Source of the DNA: Microbacterium luteolum
Lineage (GTDB): Bacteria; Actinomycetota; Actinomycetes; Actinomycetales; Microbacteriaceae
Reading direction: 5' to 3'
Length of the DNA: 64,000 bases
NCBI RefSeq assembly: GCF_039533965.1
Contig: NZ_BAAAUN010000001.1
Span: 2,392,950 to 2,456,949 of the forward strand
Of the stretch, positions 802 through 55,645 are shown piece after piece. Under the pieces are notes generated by a model. The model did no database searches, was not told the DNA's origin, and was given only the letters and a program-made list of their open reading frames with translations. Position numbers and translations under genes: made by a program. Within the stretch, counting starts at the first letter, position 1. Every line of letters starts with the position of its first letter.

Positions 802-1103
802 GTCTGACACAGCCTGCCACCGACACGCGACGCTCCCGAAAAACTAGCACGACCCCTCTTACCGATGAGGAACCCGGCGGGGCTCATTTCGTCTCGCTGG
901 CGCTCGCTCAACGACCGGGGAGGGAGAGGACCGCGCCGGTGGGCGACGGGCCCGACGATTCGCGGAGAAAGAGACGAATCACGGAGGAAAGTCCGGAGAA
1001 GTCTCCGAGATTCGTCATTCCATCCGCGATTCGTCCGCGCCGACTCCCCCGCCAGACTCCCGAACGAGTCAGACCAACGCAGGACCGCCGGGGACGCTGA
1101 GCT
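802..1103. other. Non-coding stretch with repeats
   Basis: No gene is supported here; open frames are low-complexity Arg/Ser shadows. Positions 886-920 hold a sequence of the type TCGCTGGCGCTCGCTCAAC that resembles short dispersed repeats common in actinobacterial intergenic DNA. Positions 954-1035 hold a nested palindromic element described separately. Confidence 0.6.
954..1035. repeat. Nested double-palindrome element 1
   Basis: Arms in order: L1 954-967 GACGATTCGCGGAG, L2 973-986 GACGAATCACGGAG, R2 1003-1016 CTCCGAGATTCGTC, R1 1022-1035 ATCCGCGATTCGTC. L2 pairs with R2 at 13 of 14 positions and L1 with R1 at about 12 of 14; L1 and L2 are themselves near-copies. The loop holds a further CGGAGA/TCTCCG stem. 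The same L1-L2-loop-R2-R1 layout recurs at five other intergenic sites in the window. Confidence 0.75.
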
Positions 1104-1595
1104 TCATGCCGAAGCCTCCTTCTCGACCAGTTCCGCGAGCGCCGCGGTGACCGAACCCCAGCCATCGAAGAAGCCCAGCTCCTGGTGGTGCGCGCGCGCC
1201 GCGGGGGTTCCGTGGCGCACGACCACGCGGTAGTCCGTGCCCTCGGGGTGGTCGCCGAGGATGATCTCCGCGGTCATCGCCACCGGCTCCGGATCGGCCG
1301 GACGCCACGCGCTCGTCACCGCATTGGTGAACACGAGCCGCCGCCCGTCCTCCACGACCAGGAACACCGAATCGGTGTGCGGCACGAACTCGCCCCCGTT
1401 CTCGCTCATGCGCGTGACGAAGCCGCCGCCCGGAGTGACGTCGAGTCGGTCGACCCGGGTGACCATGGGGGCCGGGATCCACCACTTCTCGAGCCGCGCG
1501 GGCTCCGTCCATGCGCGCCAGACGTCTGACGGCGATGCGCGGATCACACGCTGCAGGCTGAGGTCGTGGTCGGGGTCGATGGTCATGTCGGTCAT
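1104..1595 (-). CDS. SRPBCC / AHSA1 (START-fold) domain protein
   Basis: The 163-residue product begins near LSLQRVIRASPSDVWRAWTE and continues through LEKWW and VVEDGRRLVFTNA, ending with a GFFDGWGSVTAALAELV helix, the standard layout of AHSA1-type SRPBCC proteins with a hydrophobic ligand pocket. The ligand is unknown. An SD AGGAG sits about 5 nt before the ATG. The start overlaps the stop of the upstream ArsR gene by 4 nt, so the two are one operon. ArsR plus AHSA1 is a very common actinobacterial pair in which the regulator controls both genes. Confidence 0.9.
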   Translation of the reverse strand: MTDMTIDPDHDLSLQRVIRASPSDVWRAWTEPARLEKWWIPAPMVTRVDRLDVTPGGGFVTRMSENGGEFVPHTDSVFLVVEDGRRLVFTNAVTSAWRPADPEPVAMTAEIILGDHPEGTDYRVVVRHGTPAARAHHQELGFFDGWGSVTAALAELVEKEASA

Positions 1596-1927
1596 GATGT
1601 CTCCTGAGGATTGGCGAGGAAGTTCTCGAGGCGGTCGGTGCGCCCCTCCCAGAGGCTCCGCTGCTCGGCCAGCCAGTCATCGACGACCGCCAGCCGCTCG
1701 CGGTTGAGCGTGCAGGTGCGCACCCTGCCCGACTTCGCCGTGCGGATGAGCCCGCTCGCCTCGAGCGCCCGCACGTGCTTCATGAAGGACGGGAGGGTGA
1801 TCGGGAACGGACGCGCCAGGTCGCCGACGCTCACGGGGCCGCGCCCGAGACGGCGGACGACTTCGCGTCGGGTCGGATCCGCGAGGGCGAGGAAGACCTC
1901 GTCCAGCGGCTGCGAATGGTTAGCCAT
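1592..1927 (-). CDS. ArsR-family winged-helix regulator
   Basis: The 111-residue protein starts MANHSQPLDEVFLALADPTR and has the ArsR winged-helix core (PTRREVVRRLGRGPVSVGDLA, then LPSFMKHVRALEASGLI and the wing KSGRVRTCTL). No Cys metal motif is visible in the recognition helix, as is usual for the ArsR proteins paired with SRPBCC genes. The ATG at 1927 is preferred over a TTG further upstream. There is no SD; the region upstream carries spaced AGTTTGCC / AGTTTCCG repeats that may be its own operator. Confidence 0.9.
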   Translation of the reverse strand: MANHSQPLDEVFLALADPTRREVVRRLGRGPVSVGDLARPFPITLPSFMKHVRALEASGLIRTAKSGRVRTCTLNRERLAVVDDWLAEQRSLWEGRTDRLENFLANPQETS

Positions 1928-1964
1928 GCGGAACAGTATTGCGGAAACTATGCCACAAGGCAAA

Positions 1965-2738
1965 CTATTCGGTCGGACGCACCGGCATCCGTCCGACCGC
2001 GGCCCGCACCATGGCGGCGTTCGTCGAGGCCGGCATCCCGTCGGGCAGAGTCAGCACGTCTTCGAGACCGATCCGCGAATCCAGGCCCAGCTCGACGGCG
2101 AGGTCGAAAGCCGCCCACGCGGAACCCTCTTCGCCGTGAAGGAGGATCGGGATGCCCGGCTCCTCGGCCGCGACATGTGCGATCAGTCCCTCGGCATGAC
2201 CGCGCACGACGTCGGCCGCCTCGTCAGGAAGCTCGATCAACACACGGAGGCAGTCACCGCGAACGGGCGACCGCCGCCACGCCTCCAGGCCCGAGGAGTC
2301 CCAGATCCCCGCCTCGATGCCGACGCCGCGGCGGAGCAGCAGCGCAGCCACCTCGTCGGCACCGGCCTCGTGCCAGTTCACCGAGGCGAAGTCCGGGAGC
2401 TCCGTCCATCCGGCGATCGCGGCAAGGCGCCGCTCGACGTCGGGTTCGGCCCAGGCGCCGGTCGTCACGCCGACGGCGATGCCGGGGCAGGCCGCTCGCA
2501 CCGCGCGGAGCCACTGCGCGACATCGTCACCCTCCAGGCTGTCGCGACCGCGTTCGTCCTTCGCATGCACGTGGATCGCACCGGCTCCCGCAGCCACCGC
2601 CTGCGCCGCGTCGCCCGCCACGACCGTCGCATCGGTGCTCAACCACGGATGCTGCGCCACATCTCGCGCGCCGTTGACGCATACCTGCAGGAGCATGCGA
2701 CGGTCCGGCTGACCGTCGGCATGGGTCTCGAGAGGCAC
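1965..2738 (-). CDS. BKACE-family beta-keto acid cleavage enzyme (DUF849)
   Basis: The 257-residue protein has the metal-binding GAIHVHAKDERGRDSLEG motif near residue 55 and the C-terminal SRIGLEDVL motif typical of BKACE enzymes, Zn-dependent TIM barrels that react a beta-keto acid with acetyl-CoA to give acetoacetate and a new CoA ester. The specific keto acid is not predictable; the known lysine-fermentation member (Kce) is only one branch. It is a little shorter than many members. The start is GTG; an in-frame ATG at 2696 (MLLQVCVNGAR) is equally plausible. It lies 3 nt after the DUF2188 gene, so they are probably cotranscribed. Confidence 0.85.
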   Translation of the reverse strand: MPLETHADGQPDRRMLLQVCVNGARDVAQHPWLSTDATVVAGDAAQAVAAGAGAIHVHAKDERGRDSLEGDDVAQWLRAVRAACPGIAVGVTTGAWAEPDVERRLAAIAGWTELPDFASVNWHEAGADEVAALLLRRGVGIEAGIWDSSGLEAWRRSPVRGDCLRVLIELPDEAADVVRGHAEGLIAHVAAEEPGIPILLHGEEGSAWAAFDLAVELGLDSRIGLEDVLTLPDGMPASTNAAMVRAAVGRMPVRPTE

Positions 2739-2741
2739 CCC

Positions 2742-2969
2742 TCAGCCGATCAGGTCGCGGGGATGGACGGCATAGGCGCCGCTGTCGGGCGAAGGACCCT
2801 CTTCCGTGCGCACGGTGTGGACGACCTGACGCGCGACGGCCGCTCCCCGCCCGACCTTGACGGCCTCGGCCTCGTTCAGGAAGCTCGCGCCCAACGTGCG
2901 CGATTCCCCCTCGATGCGGTTGAACCAGATCCCGTCGCGCTGAAAAGTCTCGATGTCGCCTGCGGCCAT
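2742..2969 (-). CDS. Small DUF2188-like protein
   Basis: The 75-residue protein has an N-terminal GIWFNRIEGESR strand pair, a central helix FLNEAEAVKVGRGAAVARQV and a C-terminal hydrophilic strand ending HPRDLIG. This matches the DUF2188 pattern of very small actinobacterial proteins with unknown function. An SD AGAAAGGA lies about 6 nt upstream. The 90 nt upstream to the next gene hold its likely promoter, which I cannot place firmly. Confidence 0.7.
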   Translation of the reverse strand: MAAGDIETFQRDGIWFNRIEGESRTLGASFLNEAEAVKVGRGAAVARQVVHTVRTEEGPSPDSGAYAVHPRDLIG

Positions 2970-3060
2970 GCCGTGTCCTTTCTCTCGCGTTCCTTTCTAC
3001 GATGCGGCACCGACATGAGAGAGCCCCTTGACAGAGAAATACGTCGCCGCCGCACCGACG

Positions 3061-4248
3061 TCAGGAAACGCGGCGGAGAGCCTCGCCCATGGATTCGAAG
3101 GCCTCACCAAGCACAGGGCGAGGCGTGGCGAACACGACCCGCACGAACTCCTCGTATCCCCGGCCGAGCAGACGCCCCTCGGTGAGCACGACACCGGCCT
3201 GCTCGCGGAAGAACTCCGCCGGCGGCCCCTCGAGTTCGAGCGCGCGGGCGTCGATCCAACCGATATATGTCGCTTCCGGCACGCGATACACAGCCCCGGG
3301 AAGATGCGTCGCGACGAGGTCGCCGAGCACCCGCCGCGATCCGTCGAGGTACTCGATGACGTCCGTCAGCCAGGGCCGGCCGTGCCGATATGCGGCCGTC
3401 GACGCGACGACACCGAGGGTCGCCGCGCCGTGCTGCACCGCGAATCCGAACCGCCGGTACCGCTCCTGGTCGGCATCGTTCGAGGTGATCAGCTGCGCGG
3501 TCTTGAGTCCGGGGATGTTCCAGGCCTTCGAGGCGCTCGTGCCGGTCACGGTGTGCGCGGCCGCCGCCTCCGACACCGACGCGTAGGGGACGAACGGCCG
3601 ACCGTCGTAGCGCAGCGGCGCGTGGATCTCATCCGCGAACACCCGACCGCCGTGCCGCTCGACGATCTCGGCGATCGCCTCGAGTTCGGCGCGATCCGCG
3701 ATCGTCCCGGTGGGGTTGTGCGGGTTGCAGAGCACGAGCGTGCGGGCACCGGCGGCGAAGGCCTCGTCGATGCGCTGCAGGTCGTGCTGCCAACGCCCAT
3801 CGACCTCGACGCCCGGCACCTCGATGACCGGATGCCCGATCGCAGGAAGATATGTCAGGAACGGCATGTAGGCCGGCGTCGGCACGATCACGGCCGACCC
3901 GGCGGGCGCATACTCCTGCACCGCGACGCCGAGAACAGCCATCACGTCGGAGACCGGATGCACGCGCTCGGGATCGACGGTCCAGCCGTACTCCTCGCGC
4001 ATCCAATCGGACGTCGCCTCGCCGAGCTCCGCAGCCACCGGCGGCGACAGGTAGCCGAGGTTCTCCTCGTCGATGGCCCGATGCATCGCCGCGGCGATCT
4101 CGGGGGCGATCCCGAAGTCCATCTCCGCCACCCAGGCGCCGATCCGGCCGGGATGCAGGCTCCACTTGCGGCTGTGCGGCCGGTCGAGGTGCAGGCGCGT
4201 ACGCGCGTCGAACGGATGCGACGGGAGGGGCGGACAGTCCTCGCTCAT
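3061..4248 (-). CDS. PatB/MalY-type PLP-dependent C-S lyase
   Basis: The 395-residue fold-type I aminotransferase-class protein carries WVAEMDF at the N terminus, VLCNPHNPTGT in the middle, ADEIHAPL for the PLP-nitrogen Asp, and the Schiff-base Lys in TSASKAWNIPGLK (about residue 240). These are marks of the MalY/PatB group, which cleave cystathionine or other S-linked cysteine derivatives to a thiol, pyruvate and ammonia; aminotransferase side activity is possible. The ATG at 4248 follows TTGGGGCAG and is preferred to an ATG 12 codons earlier. Alone in its transcription unit. Confidence 0.88.
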   Translation of the reverse strand: MSEDCPPLPSHPFDARTRLHLDRPHSRKWSLHPGRIGAWVAEMDFGIAPEIAAAMHRAIDEENLGYLSPPVAAELGEATSDWMREEYGWTVDPERVHPVSDVMAVLGVAVQEYAPAGSAVIVPTPAYMPFLTYLPAIGHPVIEVPGVEVDGRWQHDLQRIDEAFAAGARTLVLCNPHNPTGTIADRAELEAIAEIVERHGGRVFADEIHAPLRYDGRPFVPYASVSEAAAAHTVTGTSASKAWNIPGLKTAQLITSNDADQERYRRFGFAVQHGAATLGVVASTAAYRHGRPWLTDVIEYLDGSRRVLGDLVATHLPGAVYRVPEATYIGWIDARALELEGPPAEFFREQAGVVLTEGRLLGRGYEEFVRVVFATPRPVLGEAFESMGEALRRVS

Positions 4249-4330
4249 CTGCCCCAACATACGGACGAACCGGGTTCGATGCATGCCGCGTTTCCGCGCA
4301 TGACGCGAACGCGGATCGAACTCGTGCCGC

Positions 4331-5395
4331 TCAGCTGCCCTTGCCGGACTCCGACCGGCGGCTCCCAGCTTCCAGCACGTCGCCGGACGGGAGCTCCTGG
4401 TGCCCGCCGAACTGCAGCCGCATGGCCGACAGCACCTGGTTGGCGAAGCGATCCTCGTCGCGCGACGCGAAGCGCTCGAAGAGGGATGCCGCGAGCACCG
4501 GCACCGGCACGCCCACGTCGACGGCCGCCTTGACCGTCCAACGTCCTTCGCCGGAATCCGACACGCGCCCGGCCAGGCCGTCGAGGGTCGGGTTCTGGTT
4601 CAGCGCCGCCGCGGTGAGGTCGAGCAGCCATGACGAGACGACGGATCCGCGCCGCCAGAGCTCCGAGACCTTGGCGGTGTCGATCGGGAACTGGTAGAAC
4701 TCCGGCTCCTCGAGCGGGGCGATCTCGGCGGAGTGCTGGGCCTCGCGGATGCCGGCATCCGCGTTCTCGAGCAGGTTGAGACCCTCGGCGAGCGCCGCCA
4801 TGATCCCGTACTCGATGCCGTTGTGCACCATCTTCACGAAGTGCCCGGCACCCGAGGGACCGCAGTGCAGGAAGCCCTGCTCCTCGGGAGCGAAGTCGCC
4901 GCTGCGTCCGGGCGTGCGCTCGATCTCACCGGGACCCGGCGCGATCGTGCGGAAGATCGGCTCGAGGCGCTGCACCGCGGCATCCGGTCCGCCGACCATC
5001 AGGCAGTAGCCGCGCTCCAGCCCGAAGACGCCGCCGCTGGTGCCGACGTCGAGGTAGTCGATGCCGCTCTCGCGGAACACGGCCGCGCGGCGGACGTCGT
5101 CGCGGTAGTTCGAGTTGCCGCCGTCGATGAGCGCGTCGCCGGGCTCCAACACGGCAGCTACCTCGTCGGCGACCTGGCCGGTGAGCGAGGCGGGCACCAT
5201 CATCCAGACGGCGCGCGGCACCTGCAGCTTCGAGACCAGATCCGGGATGCTGTCGGCGCCGACCGCACCCTCGGCGACCAGCGCCTGCACGGCCTCCGCG
5301 TTCACGTCGTAGACGACGCAGTCATGCCCCTGCCGCATCAGTCTGCGAACGATGTTCGCACCCATCCGTCCGAGTCCGATCATCGCCAGCTGCAT
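4331..5395 (-). CDS. gnd: 6-phosphogluconate dehydrogenase (decarboxylating), short type
   Basis: The 354-residue enzyme starts MQLAMIGLGRMGANIVRRL (Rossmann GxGxxG), has the substrate loop LIDGGNSNYRDD and the catalytic HFVKMVHNGIEYG helix (Lys near residue 190). Its length is that of the short, often NAD-preferring class, not the 470-residue E. coli Gnd. It converts 6-phosphogluconate to ribulose 5-phosphate and CO2. SD GGAGGGAAT sits 3-4 nt before the ATG. It could feed from the gluconokinase encoded at 37881. Divergent from the kinase gene with about 200 nt between. Confidence 0.92.
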   Translation of the reverse strand: MQLAMIGLGRMGANIVRRLMRQGHDCVVYDVNAEAVQALVAEGAVGADSIPDLVSKLQVPRAVWMMVPASLTGQVADEVAAVLEPGDALIDGGNSNYRDDVRRAAVFRESGIDYLDVGTSGGVFGLERGYCLMVGGPDAAVQRLEPIFRTIAPGPGEIERTPGRSGDFAPEEQGFLHCGPSGAGHFVKMVHNGIEYGIMAALAEGLNLLENADAGIREAQHSAEIAPLEEPEFYQFPIDTAKVSELWRRGSVVSSWLLDLTAAALNQNPTLDGLAGRVSDSGEGRWTVKAAVDVGVPVPVLAASLFERFASRDEDRFANQVLSAMRLQFGGHQELPSGDVLEAGSRRSESGKGS

Positions 5396-5596
5396 GGGAT
5401 TCCCTCCGAGTACGTGTGCGACCTCTGCGCGACGTGCGCGCCTGGTGGCGATGGTACGCCTCCGCGGTGTCGCATTCGGCGTCGATCGGCCTCTCATCCA
5501 CCGATTCGGCGGCGCGTCAAGGCAGGTTACGCCCAGGATGGCGCGGGATACTGTCATGGACGGCAAGACCCGGATGCCGCGAACGAGGAGTGCGTG

Positions 5597-6469
5597 ATGA
5601 CGCTGGAGGTTCTCTCTCCGACGTCCGCTCTGCTCGACGGACGCTACGTCCTGCAGGACCGGGTCGGCCAGGGCGGCACCGCCACCGTCTACCGCGCCGA
5701 GGACACGCACCTGGGGCGCACCGTCGCGATCAAGATGCTCCACCGCGGCGAAGGCGCGCTTCGATCGGCGGATAACGCGCGCACGGAGGAGGCCCTCCTC
5801 GCCTCGCTGAGCCACCCCTCGCTGGTCGCGCTGTTCGACGCGCAGCTGCGGCGTCGCCGGCCCCAGTACCTGGTCATGGAATTCGTCGACGGGCCGACGC
5901 TCGCCGAGCGCATGACCGCGGGACCGATCCCGCCACGGCAGCTCGCCCACCTGACCCGCGATCTCGCCGAGGGTCTCGCCGCCGTGCACGCCGCCGGCAT
6001 CGTCCATCGCGACGTGAAGCCGTCGAACGTGCTGCTGGCGCCGCGTCGCACACGCCGCGGAGGGCAATGGGCCGCGAAGCTCGCCGACTTCGGCATCGCC
6101 TGCGCGCTCGACGATGCGCGGATGACCTCGTCGGGCCATGTCCTGGGCACCCTCACCTACATGGCGCCGGAGCAGCTGCGCGACGCCGACCCCGGCACCG
6201 CGGTCGATGTCTTCGCGCTCGGCCTGGTCATGCTCGAAGCCCTCACCGGCGAGGCCGGATACGCCGCTCTCGGCACGGGCCGCGCGGCCGCGATCAGGCG
6301 CCTGAGCACGAAGCCGTTCATCCCGGCATCCGTCGACGGCGACTGGCGACGACTGCTGGAGCACATGACGCGCCTCGACCCGCGTGAGCGGCCGACGGCC
6401 GTCGAGGTCGTCCGCGCTGCGCGTGACCTCGTGCGCGGCGACCGGCGCGTGGAGCTCAGCGCCGCCTGA
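5597..6469 (+). CDS. Soluble Hanks-type serine/threonine protein kinase
   Basis: The 290-residue protein is just a kinase domain. Visible motifs: glycine loop RVGQGGTATVYRAED, Lys in VAIKML (about 45), catalytic loop GIVHRDVKPSNVLL (Asp about 139), ADFGIAC, and MAPEQL. No transmembrane helix, PASTA or other sensor domain follows, unlike PknB; it is presumably cytosolic. SD GAGGAG lies 7 nt upstream of the ATG. A possible -10 TACTGT lies near 5552, with TTACGC 16 nt upstream. Partner phosphatase and substrates are not in the window. Confidence 0.92.
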   Translation: MTLEVLSPTSALLDGRYVLQDRVGQGGTATVYRAEDTHLGRTVAIKMLHRGEGALRSADNARTEEALLASLSHPSLVALFDAQLRRRRPQYLVMEFVDGPTLAERMTAGPIPPRQLAHLTRDLAEGLAAVHAAGIVHRDVKPSNVLLAPRRTRRGGQWAAKLADFGIACALDDARMTSSGHVLGTLTYMAPEQLRDADPGTAVDVFALGLVMLEALTGEAGYAALGTGRAAAIRRLSTKPFIPASVDGDWRRLLEHMTRLDPRERPTAVEVVRAARDLVRGDRRVELSAA

Positions 6470-6526
6470 CGTCGCGTCCGTACGCCTCCGCCACCTCCGG
6501 CGAACCGGCAGCCGGCCACGCGCGCC

Positions 6527-7720
6527 TCAGGTACCGACCCGCAGCGCCTCGACCGGATTCATCCGCGCCGCGCGCACTGCCGGATACGTTCCGAAGAACA
6601 CTCCGATGATGACCGAGAGCCCTGCGGCCAGCAGCACCGTCGGTCCGTCGATGAGCGGTTGCACCCCGTTGATCGGGAACAACGCCACGACGAGTGCAAG
6701 CAGCACACCGAGCCCGCCGCCGACGACGCTCAGCACGGTCGCCTCGAGCACGAACTGCCCCGCGATGGAGCCCGGTTGCGCACCGAGCGCCTTGCGGATG
6801 CCGATCTCCCGCGTGCGCTCGCGCACCGTGAGCAGCATGACGTTCGTGACGCCGATACCGCCGACGAGCAGGCTGATGCCCGCCACGCTCGCGAGCATGC
6901 CGTTCAGACTCTCCTGTGCGCCGCCGAGCGTCTCGCGCAGCTCATCCGAGGAGTAGAAGCTCGGTTCCGTCGACCCGCGTGCCGTGAGGATGGCCGTCGC
7001 CTGCTGTTTCGCGGCATCCACGGTCTCCGGCGACTTCGCGCTGAAGACGACACCCGCGAGCGGTCCGAAGCCGCTGATGGTCGCCCGCACACGATCGATG
7101 GGAGCGAACAGGTTGCCTTCGGATCCCCCCGTGCCGAACTTCTTGTCGACAGCCGTGGGCGCGAGCACACCGATCACCTTCATCGGGCTGCCCGCGACGA
7201 GGATCGTCTTGCCGACGACCGAGGGCTGGTCGGGGAACAGGATCTTCGCGAGCGTCCCGTCGATGACGGCGACCGCCTCGCCGCCGAAGACGTCTGACGG
7301 GGAGAACACCCGCCCCTCGACGACTCGGGAGTTCTTGATCGTGAAGTAGTCCGGGGTCGTCCCCGTGGCGTAGGCCGAACTCGACTTGTCACCGGCGACG
7401 ACCTTGGCGGTGGCGGCCGAGATGGGGGCGACGAGAGTGATGTCCGGCCCGAGCGGACTCTTCGCGAGGGCATCGGCATCCTCCTGTGTGAGCGGTGCCG
7501 GCATGAAGCCTTGCGGATCGAAGCCCGGATAGGCGTCGACGGCCGACGCACCGAGGGAGGCGATCTGATCGTTCACCTGTTTCGTCGTGCCGTTGCCGAC
7601 CGCGACCAGCGTGATGACGGAGCCGACGCCGATGACGACCATGAGCACGGTGAGGATGGAGCGGGTGAGGTTGCCGGCGATCCCCCGCGAGGCGACGACG
7701 ACGGTTTCGAGGATGTTCAT
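6527..7720 (-). CDS. MacB-type ABC transporter permease
   Basis: The 397-residue protein has one N-terminal membrane helix (about 17-40), a large extracytoplasmic MacB core domain (about 45-250) and three C-terminal helices forming the FtsX domain, with TREIGIRKALGA between the first two. This is the mechanotransmission class rather than a classical importer. ATG overlaps the ATPase stop by 4 nt. With the ATPase and the HlyD adaptor it should form a tripartite-like efflux unit; in a Gram-positive cell the adaptor ends outside the membrane. Likely cargo is an antimicrobial peptide, lipid or macrolide-like compound (inference). Confidence 0.92.
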   Translation of the reverse strand: MNILETVVVASRGIAGNLTRSILTVLMVVIGVGSVITLVAVGNGTTKQVNDQIASLGASAVDAYPGFDPQGFMPAPLTQEDADALAKSPLGPDITLVAPISAATAKVVAGDKSSSAYATGTTPDYFTIKNSRVVEGRVFSPSDVFGGEAVAVIDGTLAKILFPDQPSVVGKTILVAGSPMKVIGVLAPTAVDKKFGTGGSEGNLFAPIDRVRATISGFGPLAGVVFSAKSPETVDAAKQQATAILTARGSTEPSFYSSDELRETLGGAQESLNGMLASVAGISLLVGGIGVTNVMLLTVRERTREIGIRKALGAQPGSIAGQFVLEATVLSVVGGGLGVLLALVVALFPINGVQPLIDGPTVLLAAGLSVIIGVFFGTYPAVRAARMNPVEALRVGT

Positions 7721-8415
7721 GCGGCCGCCTCCTCGTTGGTGCGACTGCTCTCGATGCGCCCGTCGCGCATCACGATCACGCGCTCGGCGCGGGCCGCGAC
7801 ATCATCCTCGTGCGTGATGATGACGACGGTCGCACCGTCGCGGTGGAGCTCCTCGAAGATTCCGAGCACATCGTCGGTCGCACGGGAGTCGAGGTTGCCG
7901 GTCGGCTCGTCGGCAAGGATGAACGCGGGGCGGTTGACGAGCGAACGAGCCACCGCGACGCGCTGCTGCTGCCCTCCGGAGAGCTGGTTGGGCCGATGAT
8001 GCTCGCGGCCGTCGAGCCCCACCCGGGCGAGCGCTTCGAGGGCGCGCTCGCGCCGCTCCGCCCGTCCGACGCCGGCATACGCCATGGGCAGCTCGACGTT
8101 GCCGACGGCCGTCAGAGCCGGGATGAGATTGAAAGACTGGAAGACGAACCCGATCTGCATGTTCCGGATGCGCGCGACCTCTCTCTCGGGCAGCTCGGAC
8201 ACCCGCTGCCCCGCGATGGCGAGCGAACCGGAGCTCGGCCTGTCGAGACAGCCGAGGATGTTCAGGAGGCTCGACTTCCCGGCGCCGGAGCGTCCGACGA
8301 TGGCGAGGAACTCTCCGTCGGGCACGACGAGGTCGACGCCGTCGAGGGCATGCACGACACCGGTGCCGCTGCCATAGCTGCGGCGGACGTCGGTGAGTTC
8401 GATGGCGATGCTCAT
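7717..8415 (-). CDS. MacB/LolD-type ABC ATPase
   Basis: The 232-residue ATPase has Walker A GRSGAGKSSLLN, signature LSGGQQQRVAVARSL, Walker B FILADEPTGNLDS and the FNLIPALTAVGNVELPM stretch common to the MacB/LolD/FtsE group. It powers the permease encoded next. Both its start and its stop overlap neighbours by 4 nt, so translation of adaptor, ATPase and permease is likely coupled. Confidence 0.95.
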   Translation of the reverse strand: MSIAIELTDVRRSYGSGTGVVHALDGVDLVVPDGEFLAIVGRSGAGKSSLLNILGCLDRPSSGSLAIAGQRVSELPEREVARIRNMQIGFVFQSFNLIPALTAVGNVELPMAYAGVGRAERRERALEALARVGLDGREHHRPNQLSGGQQQRVAVARSLVNRPAFILADEPTGNLDSRATDDVLGIFEELHRDGATVVIITHEDDVAARAERVIVMRDGRIESSRTNEEAAA

Positions 8416-9614: not shown

Positions 9615-9622
9615 GTCGCCAG

Positions 9623-11119: not shown

Positions 11120-11124
11120 CACGG

Positions 11125-11838: not shown

Positions 11839-11847
11839 CCCGTCATC

Positions 11848-15423: not shown

Positions 15424-15513
15424 GCGTGCACAACTCAGCAAGAACATGCGCCGCACGTCCCAGAACACCTGGTTCGGGGCGGATGCGAGGTGTTCTTGCG
15501 GAGTTGTGCACGC
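15424..15513. repeat. Nested double-palindrome element 2
   Basis: The left arm 15424-15446 (starts GCGTGCACAACTC, ends GCAAGAACA) pairs with 15491-15513 at 22 of 23 positions. An inner arm AGAACACCT (15462-15470) pairs with AGGTGTTCT (15488-15496), which overlaps the right arm, so two alternative hairpins compete. It lies between convergent genes (SpoIIM-like and VOC) and no T-tract follows. Confidence 0.8.
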
Positions 15514-24362: not shown

Positions 24363-24390
24363 GGGGGGAGGTTCCTTCCGTTGCGGTGGG

Positions 24391-24484
24391 CGTTCCGGTC
24401 GCACTTCGTGTTGTTCGTGGCCGTTCCGGTCGCAGTATCTGCCGCCTGCCGCGCGCTCCAGCGGCCGAAAGTGCGACCGGAACG
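24391..24484. repeat. Nested palindrome element 3
   Basis: L1 24391-24408 CGTTCCGGTCGCACTTCG and a shorter copy L2 24422-24434 CGTTCCGGTCGCA can each pair with R 24466-24484 CGAAAGTGCGACCGGAACG (L1 with one extra T in R). So one right arm has two competing left arms. It occupies the whole 132-nt gap between the ABC ATPase end and the dehydrogenase start, both on the minus strand. Confidence 0.8.
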
Positions 24485-24494
24485 CGGGCGGCGG

Positions 24495-33076: not shown

Positions 33077-33163
33077 GCACGCACTACGAAGGAGATCTCA
33101 CGCTTCGAAGGAGCATCCGGCCTCAAACCTCCTTCATTGCGTGAGATCTCCTTCACGACGTGC
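33077..33163. repeat. Nested double-palindrome element 4 (GAAGGAGATCTC type)
   Basis: L1 33088-33103 GAAGGAGATCTCACGC pairs perfectly with R1 33139-33154; L2 33107-33113 GAAGGAG pairs with R2 33129-33135 CTCCTTC. An outer GCACG/CGTGC pair (33077, 33159) extends it. It fills the gap between the convergent TetR and M20 genes. The L1 sequence recurs at 55579. Confidence 0.85.
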
Positions 33164-43993: not shown

Positions 43994-44076
43994 CCGACTT
44001 CTGCGGCCATCTCGAACTTCTGCGGCCCATCCGGGCTGATGTGGCCGCAGAAGTTCGGATCGGCCGCAGAAGTCGG
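43994..44076. repeat. Nested double-palindrome element 5
   Basis: L1 43994-44008 CCGACTTCTGCGGCC pairs perfectly with R1 44062-44076; L2 44014-44027 GAACTTCTGCGGCC pairs perfectly with R2 44043-44056. L1 and L2 share ACTTCTGCGGCC. The gaps L1-L2 and R2-R1 are both 5 nt. It follows the corA stop by 14 nt. Confidence 0.9.
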
Positions 44077-44152: not shown

Positions 44153-44171
44153 GGAGGGTGGAGGTGGTCTC

Positions 44172-44846: not shown

Positions 44847-44848
44847 CC

Positions 44849-45841: not shown

Positions 45842-45854
45842 GCGCGCGCCGGCA

Positions 45855-46331: not shown

Positions 46332-46389
46332 GAGACCAGTCTTTCGCATCCGGCCGCCGCGCGGGCGGCCGGATGCGGAGACGATCGGG

Positions 46390-48900: not shown

Positions 48901-49667
48901 CACCACTCCCCGAGCGCGCTCATGCGGTCGGTGATCTGCGCCGGCGTCCCACCGTCGAGGTACCCGGCGAACGACCCGTCGGCGAGGAAGATCACGCGGT
49001 CCGCGTGCGAGGCGACGACCGGGTCGTGCGTCACGACGACGACGGTCTGGTCGAGCTCCTTCGCCGTGTGCGCGAGCAGATCGAGCACCTGCTTGCCGGA
49101 GCGCGAGTCCAGCGCGCCCGTCGGCTCGTCGCCGAAGACCACGTACGGCCGGGTGATCAGCGCGCGGGCGATCGCGACGCGCTGCTGCTGGCCGCCGGAG
49201 AGCTCGGCCGGACGGCGGAGCCGCCGATCACGGAGCCCGACCGCGTCGAGCAGGAAATCGAGCCATCCCGGGTCGAGCCGGCGCCCGGACAGGCGCAGCG
49301 GGAGCGTGATGTTCTCCTCGACGTTCAGGGCGGGGAGCAGGTTGTACGCCTGGAAGACGAAGCCGACGTGGTCACGCCGGAACGCCGTGAGCTTCGCAGC
49401 GCGCAGTCCGGAGATCTCGGTGCCGCCGAGCTGCACGGTGCCGCTGGTGGGCTTGTCGAGGCCGGCCGCGCTGTGCAGCAGCGTGCTCTTGCCCGAGCCG
49501 GACGGGCCCATGATCGCGGTGAACGAGCCCTTCGCCAGGACGAGGTCGACGCCACGGAGCGCCGACACCGCATTGGCGCCGGAGCCGTAGGTCTTGACGA
49601 CGGATTGGAGGCGCAGCGCCTCGGCCGGACGAGCGTCGGCGGCGGATGCGAGTGGTGTGGAGGTCAT
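48900..49667 (-). CDS. ABC ATPase for the FtsX exporter
   Basis: The 255-residue ATPase has GPSGSGKSTLLHSAAGLDKP, FQAYNLLPALNVEENITLPL, LSGGQQQRVAIARAL and VVFGDEPTGALDS. It pairs with the permease downstream. It is divergent from a DesK/NarL-type two-component system, which probably controls it. Confidence 0.94.
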   Translation of the reverse strand: MTSTPLASAADARPAEALRLQSVVKTYGSGANAVSALRGVDLVLAKGSFTAIMGPSGSGKSTLLHSAAGLDKPTSGTVQLGGTEISGLRAAKLTAFRRDHVGFVFQAYNLLPALNVEENITLPLRLSGRRLDPGWLDFLLDAVGLRDRRLRRPAELSGGQQQRVAIARALITRPYVVFGDEPTGALDSRSGKQVLDLLAHTAKELDQTVVVVTHDPVVASHADRVIFLADGSFAGYLDGGTPAQITDRMSALGEW

Positions 49668-49790
49668 GCTTCGACGCTACGAACGCCGGCGACGGCATCC
49701 CATCCCGCTGCCCACCGGAACGATGGTGGTGCTGGCTATACCGCGCCGGCATCCGCACTCCGGCAGACTTGCAGAGTGAAGGACGGACGG

Positions 49791-51011
49791 ATGCGACGCT
49801 GGCTGCGGGACTGGCGGTACGTGGCGGTCGAGTTCGCGGCATCCGTCGTCTCGCTCGTGCTCTTCTGCGTCGGGATGCTGCTGCTGCCGCTGATGATCAT
49901 CACCGGCGGCGTGCTGATCCTGCCGCAGGCCGTACGCATCCTGCACGCGTGGAGCGACCTCAACCGCCGGCGCATCGGCGCCTTCCGCGGGGTGGACCTG
50001 CCTCCGATCTCGCGCCCGCTCCCCCCGGGGGCCACGATCGACGATCGTCTGCGCTTCGCCTTCTCGCGATCGACCGGCCGCGACGCGCTGTGGCTCGCCG
50101 TGCACGCCCTGCCCGTGTTCTCGGTGTCGTTGCTCGCGGCTGTGCTTCCGGTGGCTGCGGTCAACGCCCTCGCCCTGACCTACTACTGGCAGTTCGCGCC
50201 CGCCGATGATCCGGTCGGATCCCCCTATCCGGTCACCTCGTGGGAGCTCGCGGCCACGATGCCGCTGGTCGCCGTCGCCTATGCGCTGATCTCCTGGTGG
50301 CTCATGCCCGCCGTCGCGCGGCTGGTGTCCTGGACGTCGGCGCGACTGCTCGCGACGCCCGAGAAGTCGCGTCTCGCCGCACGCGTGGACGCCCTCACGC
50401 TCAGTCGCGCCGCCGCCCTCGACGCGCACGGCGCGGAGCTCCGCCGCATCGAGCGCGACCTGCACGACGGCGCACAGAACCGCCTCGTGAACGTCGTGAT
50501 GATGCTCGGGATCGCGGAGCGGGCACTCGAGACCGATCCGAGCGGAGTGCTCGAGCCGCTCCGCCGCGCGCAGGATGCCGCGACCGACGCCCTCGCGGGG
50601 CTGCGCCGCACGGTGCACGACATCTATCCGCCGATCCTCGACGAGCTCGGCCTGGAGGGGGCGCTGGCGTCGCTCGCCGGCCGCAGCGCGGTGCCCTGCA
50701 CGATCGAGGCCGCCGATGTCGGACGCGTGCCCGCCGCGGTCGAGTCCGCCAGCTACTTCGTCGTCGCCGAGGCTCTCACCAACGTGAACAAGTACAGCGG
50801 CGCCGCGCACGCGACCGTGCAGGTGAGCCGCGAGAGCGAGCGCCTGATCATCACCGTCGAAGACGATGGCGCGGGCGGCGCCGTGGAGCGTCCGGGCGGC
50901 GGACTCGCCGGCATCCGCCGCCGCGTCGAGGCCTTCGAGGGCACGACGGAGCTGACCAGCCCGGTCGGCGGACCGACCACCCTGAGAGCGGAGCTGCCAT
51001 GCGGATCGTGA
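49791..51011 (+). CDS. DesK/NarL-type sensor histidine kinase
   Basis: The 406-residue kinase has about four membrane helices in the first 190 residues, then the HisKA_3 box ELRRIERDLHDGAQNRLVNV (His about 225) and a HATPase_c with EALTNVNKYSGA and GGGLAGIRRRVEAFEG. The short external loops suggest sensing within the membrane. ATG 49791 follows AAGGA; a GTG five codons earlier is preceded by a -10-like CAGACT and would give a leaderless start. It overlaps the response-regulator start by 13 nt. Confidence 0.91.
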   Translation: MRRWLRDWRYVAVEFAASVVSLVLFCVGMLLLPLMIITGGVLILPQAVRILHAWSDLNRRRIGAFRGVDLPPISRPLPPGATIDDRLRFAFSRSTGRDALWLAVHALPVFSVSLLAAVLPVAAVNALALTYYWQFAPADDPVGSPYPVTSWELAATMPLVAVAYALISWWLMPAVARLVSWTSARLLATPEKSRLAARVDALTLSRAAALDAHGAELRRIERDLHDGAQNRLVNVVMMLGIAERALETDPSGVLEPLRRAQDAATDALAGLRRTVHDIYPPILDELGLEGALASLAGRSAVPCTIEAADVGRVPAAVESASYFVVAEALTNVNKYSGAAHATVQVSRESERLIITVEDDGAGGAVERPGGGLAGIRRRVEAFEGTTELTSPVGGPTTLRAELPCGS

Positions 51012-51637
51012 TCGCCGAGGACGACACCCTGCTGCGGGAGGGGCTCGCGCTGCTGCTGCGCAGCGAGGGCTTCGATGTCGTCGCCGCGGTCGACAACGCC
51101 GACGACTTCCTGCTCCGGCTCGACGAAGCGGATGCCGCGGTCGTCGATGTGCGGATGCCGCCGACGTTCACGAGCGAAGGGCTGAAGGCCGCGGCCGAGG
51201 CACGCGCGCGTCGCCCGGGCTTCCCGGTGCTGGTGCTGTCCGCCTACGTCGAGGACCGCTACGCCGGGGAGCTGCTCGCCGCCGGCGCCGACGGGCTCGG
51301 GTATCTGCTCAAGGAGCGCGTCGGCAAGGTCGCCTCGTTCATCGACGCCCTCCACCGCGTGGCCGCGGGGGGCACCGTCATGGACCCCGAGGTCATCTCG
51401 CAGCTCATGAGCAGGCGTCGCGCCGACGACCCGGTGCAGTCGCTCACGCCGCGAGAGCGCGAGGTGCTCGGGCTCATGGCGGAAGGCCTCGACAACGCCA
51501 CGATCGCCGCACGACTCTTCGTGACGGAGACCGCGGTGAGCAAGCACATCGGCAACATCTTCGCCAAGCTCGGGCTCGCGACGAGCGACAGCGGGCACCG
51601 CCGCGTGCTCGCTGTGCTCGCGTACCTCCGCGACTGA
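50999..51637 (+). CDS. NarL/LuxR-family response regulator
   Basis: The 212-residue regulator has a receiver domain (MRIVIAEDDTLLREGLALLL; phosphoacceptor in ADAAVVDVRMPP, Asp about 50; Lys in GYLLKERVGK) and a LuxR helix-turn-helix (SLTPREREVLGLMAEGLDNA, TIAARLFVTETAVSKHIGNI). It should act on the divergent exporter promoter between 49668 and 49790. Confidence 0.94.
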   Translation: MRIVIAEDDTLLREGLALLLRSEGFDVVAAVDNADDFLLRLDEADAAVVDVRMPPTFTSEGLKAAAEARARRPGFPVLVLSAYVEDRYAGELLAAGADGLGYLLKERVGKVASFIDALHRVAAGGTVMDPEVISQLMSRRRADDPVQSLTPREREVLGLMAEGLDNATIAARLFVTETAVSKHIGNIFAKLGLATSDSGHRRVLAVLAYLRD

Positions 51638-51681
51638 GCAGGCCCCTGGACACGTCGCCCGGACGAGCGCATGCTGAGACC

Positions 51682-52074
51682 ATGACCGCCTTCCAGACCA
51701 CACACGCGTTCAGCGGGTTCAGCGTCGACGACATCGACGCTGCTCGCTCCTTCTACCGCGACACGCTCGGCATGGACGTCACCGACAACGCCATGGGCTT
51801 CCTCGAGATCGCGCTGCCGCAGGGCGGCTCGATCCTCGTCTACGGCAAGCCCGATCACACGCCGGCGAGCTACACGATCCTGAACTTCCCGGTCGACGAC
51901 GTCGAGGCCGCCGTCGACGAGCTCAACGCGAAGGGCGTCGTGACGAAGATCTACACCGACCCCGATCTCGGCACCGACGCGAAGGGCATCTCGCACGGCG
52001 CCCCGGGCAAGGGACCGGACATCGCCTGGTTCACGGACCCCGCGGGGAACGTGCTCTCGGTGCTCGCGGGCTGA
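51682..52074 (+). CDS. VOC family protein
   Basis: The 130-residue protein has one VOC unit with VDDIDAARSFYRDTLGMDV, the metal-ligand-like LEIALPQGGSILVYGKPDH and the closing DPAGNVLSVLAG. Close relatives are annotated as glyoxalases without proven activity. The ATG is preceded by CATGCT at 6 nt, suggesting a leaderless mRNA. Confidence 0.88.
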   Translation: MTAFQTTHAFSGFSVDDIDAARSFYRDTLGMDVTDNAMGFLEIALPQGGSILVYGKPDHTPASYTILNFPVDDVEAAVDELNAKGVVTKIYTDPDLGTDAKGISHGAPGKGPDIAWFTDPAGNVLSVLAG

Positions 52075-52081
52075 CGCGGGG

Positions 52082-53047
52082 TCAGAGCCGGTCCGCGAGC
52101 CACGCGGTCTGCCGGTGCCACTGCACGATCAGCCCGCCCTCGTGGCCGTTGAACTCGTAGACGGCGATCTCGGCATCCGCGGAGCCGCAGTGGTTGAACG
52201 CCGCGAACACGCTCGACGGCAGCACGACGGCATCCATCAGGGCGACCGAGAACAGCACCGGCGCAGTGATGCGGCGTGCGAAGTTCACGCCGTCGAAGTA
52301 CGACAGGGTCTCGAAGATGTCCTCGACCCGCCCTCGGTGCACGCCGAGGTAGCGCCCGATCTCGGTGAACGGCAGCTCGGGGGTGAGCTGCACCGACCGT
52401 CGGAAGTGACACAGGAACGGCACGTCCGGCATGGCCGCGGAGACGTCGGGGTGCAGGGCCGCGGCCGCCAGGCTGATGCCGCCGCCCTGGCTGCCGCCGG
52501 TCACGCTGATGCGACCGCTGTCGACGGCATCCAGCTGCTTCACGGCATCGATCAGCAGCACCGCATCCGTGAACACGCGACGGTAGAAGTACGTGTCGGG
52601 ATGCTGGATGCCGCGGGTCATGAAGCCGGGGATCGATCCCTCCGACCCGTGCGGGTCGGGGGTGTCGCCGCCCGATCCCCATCCGCTGCCCTGACCGCGG
52701 GTGTCCATCAGCACGTGCACGTAGCCGGCGGCCGCCCACTGCAGCCGCTCGCCGGGGATGCCGCGACCGCCGTTGTAGCCGATGTACTCGACGACGGTCG
52801 GCAGCGGGCCCTCGACCTGCGGGCGAGTGATCCACGCGCGGATCGGCTCGCCGCCGAATCCGCTGAATGTCAGATCCTCGACGATCAGCTGCGTGATCGG
52901 GGTGGCGACCGACTCGACCACGGGCGCCGCGGCGAGCGCGCGTGACTCGGCGAGCGTACGCGCCCAGAAGTCGTCGAAGTCCGCGGGTTCGGCTACGTCG
53001 GGCCGGAAGGAGCGGAGCTGGTCCAGGGGGAGATCGGTGAGAGCCAT
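52082..53047 (-). CDS. Acetylxylan esterase / cephalosporin-C deacetylase family
   Basis: The 321-residue protein has the family features: FRPDVAEPADFDDFWARTLA, MDTRGQGSGWGSGGDTPDPH (RGQ motif), the nucleophile VTGGSQGGGISLAAAAL, Asp in SVALMDAVVLPSSVFAAFN and His in NGHEGG. These enzymes remove acetyl groups from xylo-oligosaccharides and other small esters in the cytosol. No signal peptide is seen. Confidence 0.92.
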   Translation of the reverse strand: MALTDLPLDQLRSFRPDVAEPADFDDFWARTLAESRALAAAPVVESVATPITQLIVEDLTFSGFGGEPIRAWITRPQVEGPLPTVVEYIGYNGGRGIPGERLQWAAAGYVHVLMDTRGQGSGWGSGGDTPDPHGSEGSIPGFMTRGIQHPDTYFYRRVFTDAVLLIDAVKQLDAVDSGRISVTGGSQGGGISLAAAALHPDVSAAMPDVPFLCHFRRSVQLTPELPFTEIGRYLGVHRGRVEDIFETLSYFDGVNFARRITAPVLFSVALMDAVVLPSSVFAAFNHCGSADAEIAVYEFNGHEGGLIVQWHRQTAWLADRL

Positions 53048-53101
53048 CGGCGAAAGGTTAGCGGGGCCCTCCGGAGCCGACCAAAAAGATTTCAGTATTC
53101 G

Positions 53102-53162
53102 GTGTTGCTAAGTACCGGTACTCAGTGTTACTTTGTACCGGTACCCAGCAACACTGAGTACC
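53102..53162 (+). promoter_or_regulatory. Multi-palindromic PadR operator and promoter
   Basis: AGTACCGGTACT (53111-53122) and GTACCGGTAC (53135-53144) are perfect palindromes. GGTACTCAGTGTT (53117-53129) and AACACTGAGTACC (53150-53162) are a perfect 13-bp inverted repeat, and GTGTTGCT (53102-53109) pairs with AGCAACAC (53147-53154). A promoter TTGCTA (53105) and TACTTT (53129) with 18-nt spacer runs through them. The PadR regulator encoded next is the obvious binder. Confidence 0.8.
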
Positions 53163-53185
53163 GACAGAAACGAAAGGAGGACCTG

Positions 53186-53530
53186 ATGGGCAGGCAGATG
53201 ACCGAGATGCTCAAGGGCACTCTGGAGGGCATCGTTCTGGCCCTCCTCGCCGAGCAGCCGGCGTACGGGTACGAGATCACCACACGGATCCGCGACCACG
53301 GGTTCACCGACATCGCCGAGGGCACGATCTACGCACTCCTCGTGCGCATCGAGCAGAAGAGCCTCGTCGACGTCGAGAAGGTCCCGAGCGAGAAGGGCCC
53401 GCCGCGCAAGGTCTACAGCCTCAACGCCGCGGGCACGCAGGAACTCGAGGATTTCTGGAACACCTGGAGCTTTCTCAAGAAGCACATCGAACAGCTGAAC
53501 AAGAACAACACCGAGAACAAGGAGAACTGA
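53186..53530 (+). CDS. PadR-family transcriptional regulator
   Basis: The 114-residue protein has the PadR winged helix (LEGIVLALLAEQPAYGYEIT, IAEGTIYALLVRIEQKSLVD, wing SEKGPPRKVYSLNAAG) and a short C-terminal dimer helix, the PadR-s2/LmrR class. A strong SD AAAGGAGG lies 5 nt before the ATG. It probably represses the whole four-gene operon from the nested palindromes upstream; inducer is likely a toxic cargo of the exporter. Confidence 0.93.
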   Translation: MGRQMTEMLKGTLEGIVLALLAEQPAYGYEITTRIRDHGFTDIAEGTIYALLVRIEQKSLVDVEKVPSEKGPPRKVYSLNAAGTQELEDFWNTWSFLKKHIEQLNKNNTENKEN

Positions 53531-53532
53531 GC

Positions 53533-53904
53533 ATGGCCGCGAAGTGGATCGAAGCGATCACCGGATCGCTCGAAGAGAAGAAGCAGTACAAGCAGGCTCA
53601 GGCCCGCATCAACGCCCTCCCCGAGCCGTACCGCGAGGTCGCCAAAGCGCAGCAGCGTTACAACATGTACTACGGCGGTGTCACGGACGGCGACACGATC
53701 GTGAAGATGTTCCTCGACATCGCGGATCTGTGGGAGCGCGCCGCGATCGACGGCACCCCGGTCAGCGCCATCGTCGGCGACGACCCCGTCGAGTTCGCCG
53801 AGAACTACGCGGCCGCATACGGCGGACGGCAGTGGATCGACAAGGAGCGCACGCGCCTCATCAAGGCGTTCGACGACGCGAAGAAGAAGGAGAACGGATC
53901 ATGA
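53533..53904 (+). CDS. DUF1048 protein
   Basis: The 123-residue helical protein (WIEAITGSLEEKKQYKQAQA, YREVAKAQQRYNMYYGG, AAAYGGRQWIDKERTRL) is a DUF1048 member. This family regularly sits between a PadR regulator and a drug-type ABC exporter; its role is unknown. It follows PadR after 2 nt and overlaps the ATPase start by 4 nt. Confidence 0.88.
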   Translation: MAAKWIEAITGSLEEKKQYKQAQARINALPEPYREVAKAQQRYNMYYGGVTDGDTIVKMFLDIADLWERAAIDGTPVSAIVGDDPVEFAENYAAAYGGRQWIDKERTRLIKAFDDAKKKENGS

Positions 53905-54674
53905 GCACCGCAGCCATCAGCGTCAAGGGCCTGCAGAAGTCCTACAAGGACCTGCATGTGCTGCGCGGCGTCGACTTCGACGTGCAGAAGGGCAGCATCT
54001 TCGCCCTTCTCGGGTCGAACGGCGCGGGCAAGACCACCGTGGTGCGCATCCTCTCCACCCTGCTGAAGGCGGATGCCGGCACGGCCACCGTGCAGGGCGT
54101 GGACGTCGCGACCGATCCGGTCGGCGTCCGCGAGAAGATCAGTCTCACCGGGCAGTTCGCCGCGGTCGACGAGATCCTCTCCGGACGCGAGAACCTGGTG
54201 CTGGTCGCGAAGCTGCGGCACCTCCCCGACGCCGGGAAGGTCGCCGACGATCTGCTGGCGAAGTTCCGACTGACGGATGCCGGTGGCCGCAAGGTCGGCA
54301 CCTACTCGGGCGGCATGCGCCGTCGGCTCGACATCGCGATGAGCCTGGTCGGACACCCCGAGGTCATCTACCTCGACGAGCCGACCACGGGCCTCGACCC
54401 CGAAGCCCGCATCGAGGTGTGGGACGTCATCAAGGAGCTCGCGAACACCGGCACCACCGTGCTGCTCACCACGCAGTACCTCGACGAGGCGGAGCAGCTG
54501 GCCGACCGCATCGCGATCCTGCACGAGGGACGCATCATCGCCAACGACACCCTCGCCGGGCTGAAGAAGCTGCTCCCGGCCGCCAAGGTCGAGTACGTCG
54601 AGAAGCAGCCCACCCTCGAGGAGATCTTCCTCACCCTCATCGGCCCGTCTTCCAAGAAGGAGAACGCAGCATGA
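53901..54674 (+). CDS. Drug-type ABC exporter ATPase (DrrA-like)
   Basis: The 257-residue ATPase has GSNGAGKTTVVRILSTL, the DrrA-type GQFAAVDEILSGRENL, YSGGMRRRLDIAMSLVG, VIYLDEPTTGLDPEAR and TTQYLDEAEQLADRIAIL, then a short C-terminal domain ending TLEEIFLTLIG. It energises the ABC-2 permease next to it. Confidence 0.94.
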   Translation: MSTAAISVKGLQKSYKDLHVLRGVDFDVQKGSIFALLGSNGAGKTTVVRILSTLLKADAGTATVQGVDVATDPVGVREKISLTGQFAAVDEILSGRENLVLVAKLRHLPDAGKVADDLLAKFRLTDAGGRKVGTYSGGMRRRLDIAMSLVGHPEVIYLDEPTTGLDPEARIEVWDVIKELANTGTTVLLTTQYLDEAEQLADRIAILHEGRIIANDTLAGLKKLLPAAKVEYVEKQPTLEEIFLTLIGPSSKKENAA

Positions 54675-55438
54675 CCACGCACTTCGCGGCGGACACCGCG
54701 ACACTCACCGGCCGCTCCATGCGGCACATCTTCCGCAGTCCCGACACGATCATCACCACGGCGGTCACCCCGATCGCCCTGATGCTCCTGTTCGTGTACG
54801 TCTTCGGGGGCGCTCTGCAGACGAGCACCGGTGCCGAGAACTATGTGAACTACCTGCTTCCCGGCATCCTGCTCATCGCCATCGCATCCGGCATCGCCTA
54901 CACGGCGTTCCGACTGTTCACCGACATGCAGAGCGGCATCTTCGAGCGGTTCCACTCCATGCCGATCGCCCGCTCGAGTGTGCTGTGGGCGCACGTGCTG
55001 ACGTCTCTCACCGCGAACGCGATCACGCTCGCTATCATCTTCGGCGTCGGATTCCTGATGGGCTTCCGCACCGGAGCGAGCGTCGGGGCATGGCTCGCCG
55101 TGATCGGCATCCTGATGCTGTTCACGCTGGCCCTCACCTGGCTGGCGATCATCGCCGGCCTGAACGCCAAGACGGTCGACGGCGCGAGCGCCTTCTCGTA
55201 CCCGCTGATCTTCCTGCCGTTCATCAGCTCGGCCTTCGTGCCGACGGACACGATGCCCGGTCCGGTGCAGTGGTTCGCCGACAACCAGCCGGTCACCTCG
55301 ATCGTCAACACCATCCAGGCGCTGTTCGCCGAGAAGCCCGTCGGCAACGACATCTGGGTCGCTCTCGCCTGGTGCGTCGGCATCCTCGTGGTCGCCTACG
55401 TGTTCGCGATCATCTCCTACCGGAAGAAGGTCAGTTGA
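54671..55438 (+). CDS. ABC-2 type exporter permease (DrrB-like)
   Basis: The 255-residue permease has about six helices (about 28-48, 62-85, 108-130, 140-165, 178-195, 233-250) and the ABC-2 motif GIFERFHSMPIARSSVLWAH after helix 2. Together with the ATPase it should export a hydrophobic compound. Its ATG overlaps the ATPase stop as ATGA. Confidence 0.93.
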   Translation: MTTHFAADTATLTGRSMRHIFRSPDTIITTAVTPIALMLLFVYVFGGALQTSTGAENYVNYLLPGILLIAIASGIAYTAFRLFTDMQSGIFERFHSMPIARSSVLWAHVLTSLTANAITLAIIFGVGFLMGFRTGASVGAWLAVIGILMLFTLALTWLAIIAGLNAKTVDGASAFSYPLIFLPFISSAFVPTDTMPGPVQWFADNQPVTSIVNTIQALFAEKPVGNDIWVALAWCVGILVVAYVFAIISYRKKVS

Positions 55439-55462
55439 TCTCTCCGAGCGGGACGGGACGCT

Positions 55463-55488
55463 CCGTCCGGGGTTCACACTCCGGACGG
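55463..55488 (+). terminator. Hairpin after the PadR operon
   Basis: CCGTCCGG (55463-55470) and CCGGACGG (55481-55488) form a perfect 8-bp stem with a 10-nt loop, 24 nt after the permease stop, followed by GGCGTTTCG. There is only a short T run, so termination is plausible but weak. Confidence 0.5.
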
Positions 55489-55578
55489 GGCGTTTCGCTG
55501 CGCTCGGGGCGCTGCGCGCGTTTCGCCAGGGACGAGGATCCCACGGGCTTGGGCTGACTTTCTCACCCCGCACGGAAT

Positions 55579-55645
55579 GAAGGAGATCTCGCCGTACGAA
55601 GGAGCCCCTGGCGAATGGGGCCCTTCATAGTGCGAGATCTCCTTC
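55579..55645. repeat. Nested double-palindrome element 6 (GAAGGAGATCTC type)
   Basis: L1 55579-55592 GAAGGAGATCTCGC pairs perfectly with R1 55632-55645; L2 55598-55608 GAAGGAGCCCC pairs with R2 55617-55626 GGGGCCCTTC with one bulge. L1 shares GAAGGAGATCTC with element 4 at 33088. It lies between convergent genes (exporter permease and betaine-binding protein). Confidence 0.85.

What the first reader, a model, noticed from the sequence alone, without database searches (positions are those of the whole stretch)
954..55645. Six intergenic elements share a nested two-stem architecture but mostly not sequence
Elements at 954-1035, 15424-15513, 24391-24484, 33077-33163, 43994-44076 and 55579-55645 each carry one or two left arms and matching right arms, where the inner arm is a partial copy of the outer arm. 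Gaps and total size (67-94 nt) are similar. Four different arm sequences are seen, plus one that recurs. Five of six fill a gap downstream of a gene end; three lie between convergent genes. Without a T-tract they are not standard terminators. They could be several families of mobile palindromes, RNA-processing sites, or transcription barriers that are selected for shape.
Basis: partly seen in the sequence, partly recalled or inferred. Interest (0 to 1): 0.75.

Follow-up and report, generated by a model that had tools for sequence, protein, structure and literature searches.

The report
Palindrome families tied to Vsr-like nucleases
The window appears to lie in a Microbacterium genome with many short mirror-image DNA elements just behind genes; they fall into many sequence families with one shared layout, and several families flank their own gene for a DNA-cutting enzyme, which suggests a mobile-palindrome system that is built differently from the known REP system.

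Summary
Four of the six elements (954, 33088, 43994, 55579) are nested palindromes L1-L2-R2-R1 with a 19-nt pitch; 24390 repeats the arm on the left only; 15424 is a plain palindrome. In a 21% sample of the genome, 18 of 23 such structures have pitch 19 and 3 have 18 (two shuffled controls: 2 and 1 hits, none at 18/19). Within a family, box sequence and spacings are fixed while spacers and a 15-nt centre are free, and paired changes are rare: a site read by sequence rather than a shape. None of 24 lies in a divergent gap; they sit behind stop codons. Relatives can carry another family at the same gene end. A likely partner was found: an AbiEi-like domain plus a Vsr/I-Bth0305I-like nuclease (DUF559). 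Of 11 such genes read (57 found in 12 genomes), 9 have same-family palindromes on both sides (two of the nine with one degraded copy), the family differing between paralogs; control 3 of 276 genes. So this works like REP/RAYT with an unrelated enzyme: no Y1 transposase was found in the genome. That the nuclease binds, cuts or spreads the palindromes is inferred. A cognate gene was found for one of the window's families (ACTTCTGCGGCC).

The parts
954..1035 (.). Element 1, family H (GACGAWTCNCGGAG), nested, pitch 19, 82 nt; 68 nt behind the stop of 1104-1595(-)
15424..15513 (.). Element 2, family I (GCGTGCACAACTCAGCAAGAA), plain palindrome, convergent gap; similar arms occur in G097 beside other genes
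24390..24485 (.). Element 3, family J (CGTTCCGGTCGCA), direct repeat on the left only; same family at this site in G080, outer arms only in G097
33088..33154 (.). Element 4, family B (GAAGGAGATCTC), nested, pitch 19, 67 nt, convergent gap; G080 and G097 carry similar but different boxes here
43994..44076 (.). Element 5, family C (ACTTCTGCGGCC), nested, pitch 19, behind corA; a DUF559 gene between two C palindromes lies at C1:1356638-1357525 of the same genome
55579..55645 (.). Element 6, family B, 67 nt, convergent gap; G102 has another box family between the orthologous genes
59658..59709 (.). Plain palindrome CTTCGACAAGCTCAG, inside an ORF call (59182-60384); similar ones at L025 and L027 of the same genome; relation to the others unknown

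Best explanation
The elements are dispersed palindromic sites of a multi-copy family of AbiEi-Vsr fusion endonucleases. Shown: common layout; fixed box sequence and spacing within a family; free 15-nt centre; position behind stop codons; nuclease genes lying between two palindromes of one family, the family differing between paralogs; unit-sized copies with unrelated flanks. Inferred: the AbiEi-like domain binds the boxes, two per half-site at a pitch of 19, as a symmetric dimer or tetramer; the Vsr-like domains meet on the sequence-free centre and nick or cut there; repair of such breaks occasionally copies the palindrome to another place; copies last where they harm least or help, behind stop codons, where the hairpin may protect 3' ends or limit read-through in both directions.
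Against: No binding, cutting or movement was shown. G080, G097 and G021 carry family C palindromes, but the best matches to the C protein are about 39% identical in G080 and G097 and weak in G021, so palindromes outlive or do not need the gene. 2 of the 11 genes lack the pair (L310; the G080 ortholog of the N gene, left side only), and in L314 and L316 one of the two palindromes is degraded (arm scores 8 and 10). No cognate gene was found for families B, I and J of the window, and for H only a gene with a similar box (T). Samples of G063 and G066 held no structure at 18/19 although these genomes have 6 and 4 homologous genes. No clean target duplication was seen. Family O has another geometry.
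Confidence: 0.6

Rival explanations
1. Structure-only 3'-end hairpins: bidirectional terminators or exonuclease barriers selected for shape. Families are copies of successful hairpins, and the nuclease genes are passengers.
For: 0 of 24 in divergent gaps against 115 of 427 gaps; 11 of 24 convergent against 59 of 427; behind corA, 4 of 12 relatives have nested elements of other families and G002 and G091 plain hairpins.
Against: Boxes conserved as sequence without visible covariation; the variable spacer positions do not pair; no T-tract; does not explain the nuclease pairs.
Confidence: 0.15
2. Operator or addiction sites: the fusion protein is an AbiEi-like regulator of its own gene, and dispersed palindromes titrate or silence it; the nuclease punishes their loss.
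For: AbiEi fold; palindromes on both sides of the gene.
Against: Dispersed copies avoid divergent promoter gaps; genomes and loci without a close gene keep solo palindromes.
Confidence: 0.12
3. The pairs arise because laterally gained nuclease genes are inserted at palindrome hot spots by another system.
For: Low coding score of the N-type gene; solo palindrome at the C locus of TPD7012.
Against: The same family on both sides and a different family for most paralogs; other genes do not show it (3 of 276).
Confidence: 0.1

Closest known systems
REP/REPIN palindromes with RAYT (TnpA-REP, Y1 HUH transposase)
   Same: Dispersed extragenic palindromes, many families, and a nuclease gene flanked by palindromes of its own family (REP features recalled)
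   Different: No Y1 protein found in this genome; the enzyme is a Vsr-like nuclease with an AbiEi-like domain; nested direct repeats at pitch 19 with a free 15-nt centre
EDxHD homing endonuclease I-Bth0305I (3r3p)
   Same: Catalytic domain fold and sequence relation; recalled: a dimer with a long footprint centred on a pseudo-palindrome, and the name EDxHD
   Different: Gene is not in an intron or intein; it stands between two palindromes; many solo sites; AbiEi-like N-terminus
AbiEi antitoxin of the AbiE system (6y8q)
   Same: N-terminal domains by fold and weak profile matches
   Different: Fused to a nuclease; an AbiEii partner was not searched for
Integron attC sites
   Same: Imperfect palindromes with unpaired spacers and shared layout but variable sequence (recalled)
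   Different: Here boxes are direct repeats on each side, centre and spacers have fixed length, and I saw no cassette array in the stretches read

Membership tests
REP/RAYT | Y1 (HUH) transposase gene, PF01797 | tested here: not met
   0 matches in own genome at E 0.001; rings in 5 of 14 control genomes
REP/RAYT | Nuclease gene flanked by palindromes of its own family | tested here: met
   9 of 11 DUF559 genes read, with an unrelated enzyme
REP/RAYT | Many dispersed extragenic copies | tested here: met
   24 in 864 kb of G000, a few of them weak
EDxHD homing endonucleases | Vsr-like catalytic domain with conserved acidic and His residues | tested here: met
EDxHD homing endonucleases | Gene inside an intron or intein that interrupts its site | tested here: not met
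   ORFs between two palindromes in the 9 positive loci; introns as such were not searched for
EDxHD homing endonucleases | Cleaves its site | not testable with these tools
   needs a biochemical assay
Canonical intrinsic terminators | Stem followed by a T-tract | tested here: not met
   0 of 62 flanks with 4 or more T in 10
Described RNA families (Rfam 15) | Match at gathering score | tested here: not met
   0 matches in the window
AbiE toxin-antitoxin | AbiEii toxin gene next to AbiEi | not tested
   no search for AbiEii was run

The most novel reading that the evidence does not exclude
A previously undescribed class of bacterial mobile palindrome: many lineage-specific site families, each made, moved and read by its own AbiEi-Vsr nuclease paralog, radiating in Microbacterium and supplying interchangeable 3'-end modules to ordinary genes.
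Probability: 0.45. Interest if true: 0.9.

Novelty: new variant of a known kind. Interest (0 to 1): 0.75.

Why it matters
Multi-copy DUF559 'very-short-patch-repair endonucleases' have, as far as I know, no assigned job here; their pairing with palindrome families gives a direct, testable substrate for each paralog. It would be a second, unrelated invention of the REP/RAYT arrangement, with natural sets of DNA-binding domain and site pairs, and it shows how 3' ends of genes swap unrelated modules of one layout between species.

Tried and rejected
Rfam: nothing. Y1 transposase: none in own genome. First pattern for family B found 0 because the gap was set too short. Isolated half-sites as ends of a longer transposon: most halves of families C and N pair at the fixed distance; several in G021 do not and are probably chance or decayed. 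Target-site duplications: none convincing by eye. Exclusion between nested structures and short-loop hairpins in convergent gaps: 2 of 38 gaps have both, about 4 expected, not significant; the looser cut-off of that call also gave 10 nested hits in 326 shuffled gaps. Wider sampling gave little elsewhere: 20 stretches of six relatives 5 hits, 1 at 19; 80 kb each of G097, G063, G066, G059 no hits (one shuffled hit at pitch 18 in G059, one at 13 in G066); G110 6 hits, 3 at 19; 13 stretches (260 kb) of other families of the order 7 hits, none at 18/19, one perfect nested hairpin at 20 in L308. In one search the rows of reverse-oriented loci were misread by my script and are dropped; redid corA on both strands. 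In one search, 3 of 33 rows (L213, L217, L225) are probably chance half-hits and stayed in the counts; the remark that joint changes are no more than expected is by eye. One search kept only C copies with a 15-nt centre. Literature: searches listed nothing that I could recognise as these palindromes or as DUF559 with inverted repeats; I saw listings and abstract starts only, and read no paper. Properties of I-Bth0305I, attC, REP and AbiEi beyond tool rows are recalled.

Full report
What was checked. All six elements are inverted repeats. Four are nested with a pitch of exactly 19 nt; element 3 has the direct repeat on one side only and element 2 is plain. The genome is most likely a Microbacterium: the family C pattern, searched in a collection of 84,980 species genomes, fell in 39 stretches, all titled Microbacterium.

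More than chance. A four-way scan with pitches 12-35 allowed gave 23 hits in 427 intergenic gaps: 18 at pitch 19, 3 at 18, 1 at 21, 1 at 15; two dinucleotide controls gave 2 and 1 hits, none at 18 or 19. An exact 7-mer version gave 5 hits, 4 at pitch 19, and 0 in three controls. Syntenic stretches of relatives gave 17 hits, 10 at 19 and 4 at 18; random stretches of other genomes gave few or none (listed under Tried and rejected). With pitch restricted to 18/19 and a slightly looser cut-off, the G000 sample holds 24 structures, a few of them weak; about 115 per genome is my extrapolation. 11 are in convergent gaps, 13 co-directional, 0 divergent, where gaps number 59, 253 and 115.

Families and geometry. 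Boxes seen: ACTTCTGCGGCC (C), GAAGGAGATCTC (B), GACGAWTCGCGGAG (H), TGTCGGAC (N), TGCAGGTC (F), ATCAGGC (D, pitch 18), CGGGCGGAG, GGGAGGAG and TTCGGAGGA (E, E', S), TCGCAGAACG (Q), TCACGATCTGCGGAG (R) and others. Family B is 67 nt in 8 of 8 copies. Family C is 12-7-12-15-12-7-12 in 48 of 51. Spacers and centre are free in sequence: mean identity between 59 copies is 0.43, as in column-shuffled pairs; the most similar pairs are mainly orthologs. In 33 C elements, of 792 box cells 643 are consensus on both arms, 133 changed on one arm, 10 changed alike, 6 changed unlike; the four variable spacer positions match in 7 to 11 of 33, the three next to the inner box in 13 to 19. These copies were found by box searches, which favours consensus boxes. 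The most economical reading is a protein site with a fixed quaternary geometry.

Turnover in place. Behind corA, where G000 has family C, 4 of 12 relatives have nested elements of other families (G080 N, G074 E, G043 D, G021 N/F-like) and G002 and G091 plain hairpins. At element 4, both flanking genes being orthologous, G000 has B, G080 S and G097 E, which are similar boxes. Where G000 has a nested element, 11 of 24 orthologous gene ends in relatives have one too, against 6 of 77 elsewhere (4 of 21 with gaps of 60 or more, 2 of 56 with shorter ones) and 0 of 101 shuffled; both sides of a convergent gap count twice, so the 11 are 8 gaps, and one of them (G097 at element 6) is weak. By contrast the palindrome at 53095 in a divergent gap is conserved almost letter for letter, as an operator would be.

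Copying. Most similar pairs of C copies are orthologs, but L157 matches L181 at 88% over 76 nt, which is the unit, without flanking similarity, and shares an identical 15-nt centre with L001, whose locus is orthologous to L181. G097 has two N copies about 240 nt apart with 14 of 15 centre bases alike and, by eye, unlike flanks.

The protein. Two N palindromes in L261 flank one ORF with a DUF559 nuclease domain and an AbiEi_4 domain. A family search found six PF04480 genes in G000. Same-family palindromes flank five: C at L309, N at L311, D at L312, O at L313 and GCACGACTTCGGAG at L314, one of the latter degraded; L310 has none. Twelve Microbacterium genomes have 57 such genes. Of five more read outside G000, four have pairs (L316 F, one side degraded; L317 E-like; L318 T; L294 S), and the G080 ortholog of the N gene has only the left palindrome. 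So 9 of 11 read, of 57. Three further C-type genes (L180, L190, L161) also share flank sequence but were fetched through C palindromes and are not counted as independent. With a threshold of 14 shared nt between 300-nt flanks, 4 of 277 control genes qualify, one being the O-type gene itself. At the C locus, TPD7012 and G021 have the flanks and a single C palindrome without the gene, while H83 and P30 have the gene: gain or loss of the gene leaves one palindrome.

Against the reading. Close C-type genes were not found in G080, G097 and G021, which keep C palindromes. Homologs at about 51-55% identity occur in genomes without the exact C pattern. G063 and G066 have such genes but no structure at 18/19 in 80 kb each. 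No cognate gene is known for B, I or J. No biochemical step was tested. The 3'-end role rests on position and turnover alone.

Verdict. The elements are best read as solo copies of palindromic sites belonging to AbiEi-Vsr nuclease paralogs. It works like REP/RAYT but is not a member, because the defining Y1 enzyme was looked for and not found.

Noticed in passing
53095-53161: Palindrome with pitch 23 in a divergent gap, conserved almost letter for letter in G097, G001, G013 and G080, and similar in G102; looks like an operator in front of 53198-53530(+).
   Followed up: partly
59658-59709: Palindrome of the word CTTCGACAAGCTCAG; similar ones at L025:3002 and L027:16734; a single unit of this kind lies behind the pair-less DUF559 gene L310 (by eye).
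   Followed up: no
L263, L218 and other G080 contig ends: Some G080 contigs begin or end inside a palindrome, so short-read assemblies may break at them.
   Followed up: no
L313, L017:18165 and 19267: Family O (CCCGTGGCAC...) has another geometry and a more distant DUF559 protein, as if nuclease subgroup and palindrome layout go together.
   Followed up: partly
33088-33154 and orthologous gaps in G080, G097: Boxes B, S and E at one locus are similar, as if all four boxes change together over time.
   Followed up: partly
L308:9797-9861: A perfect nested hairpin with pitch 20 in a genome of another family of the order, between convergent genes.
   Followed up: no
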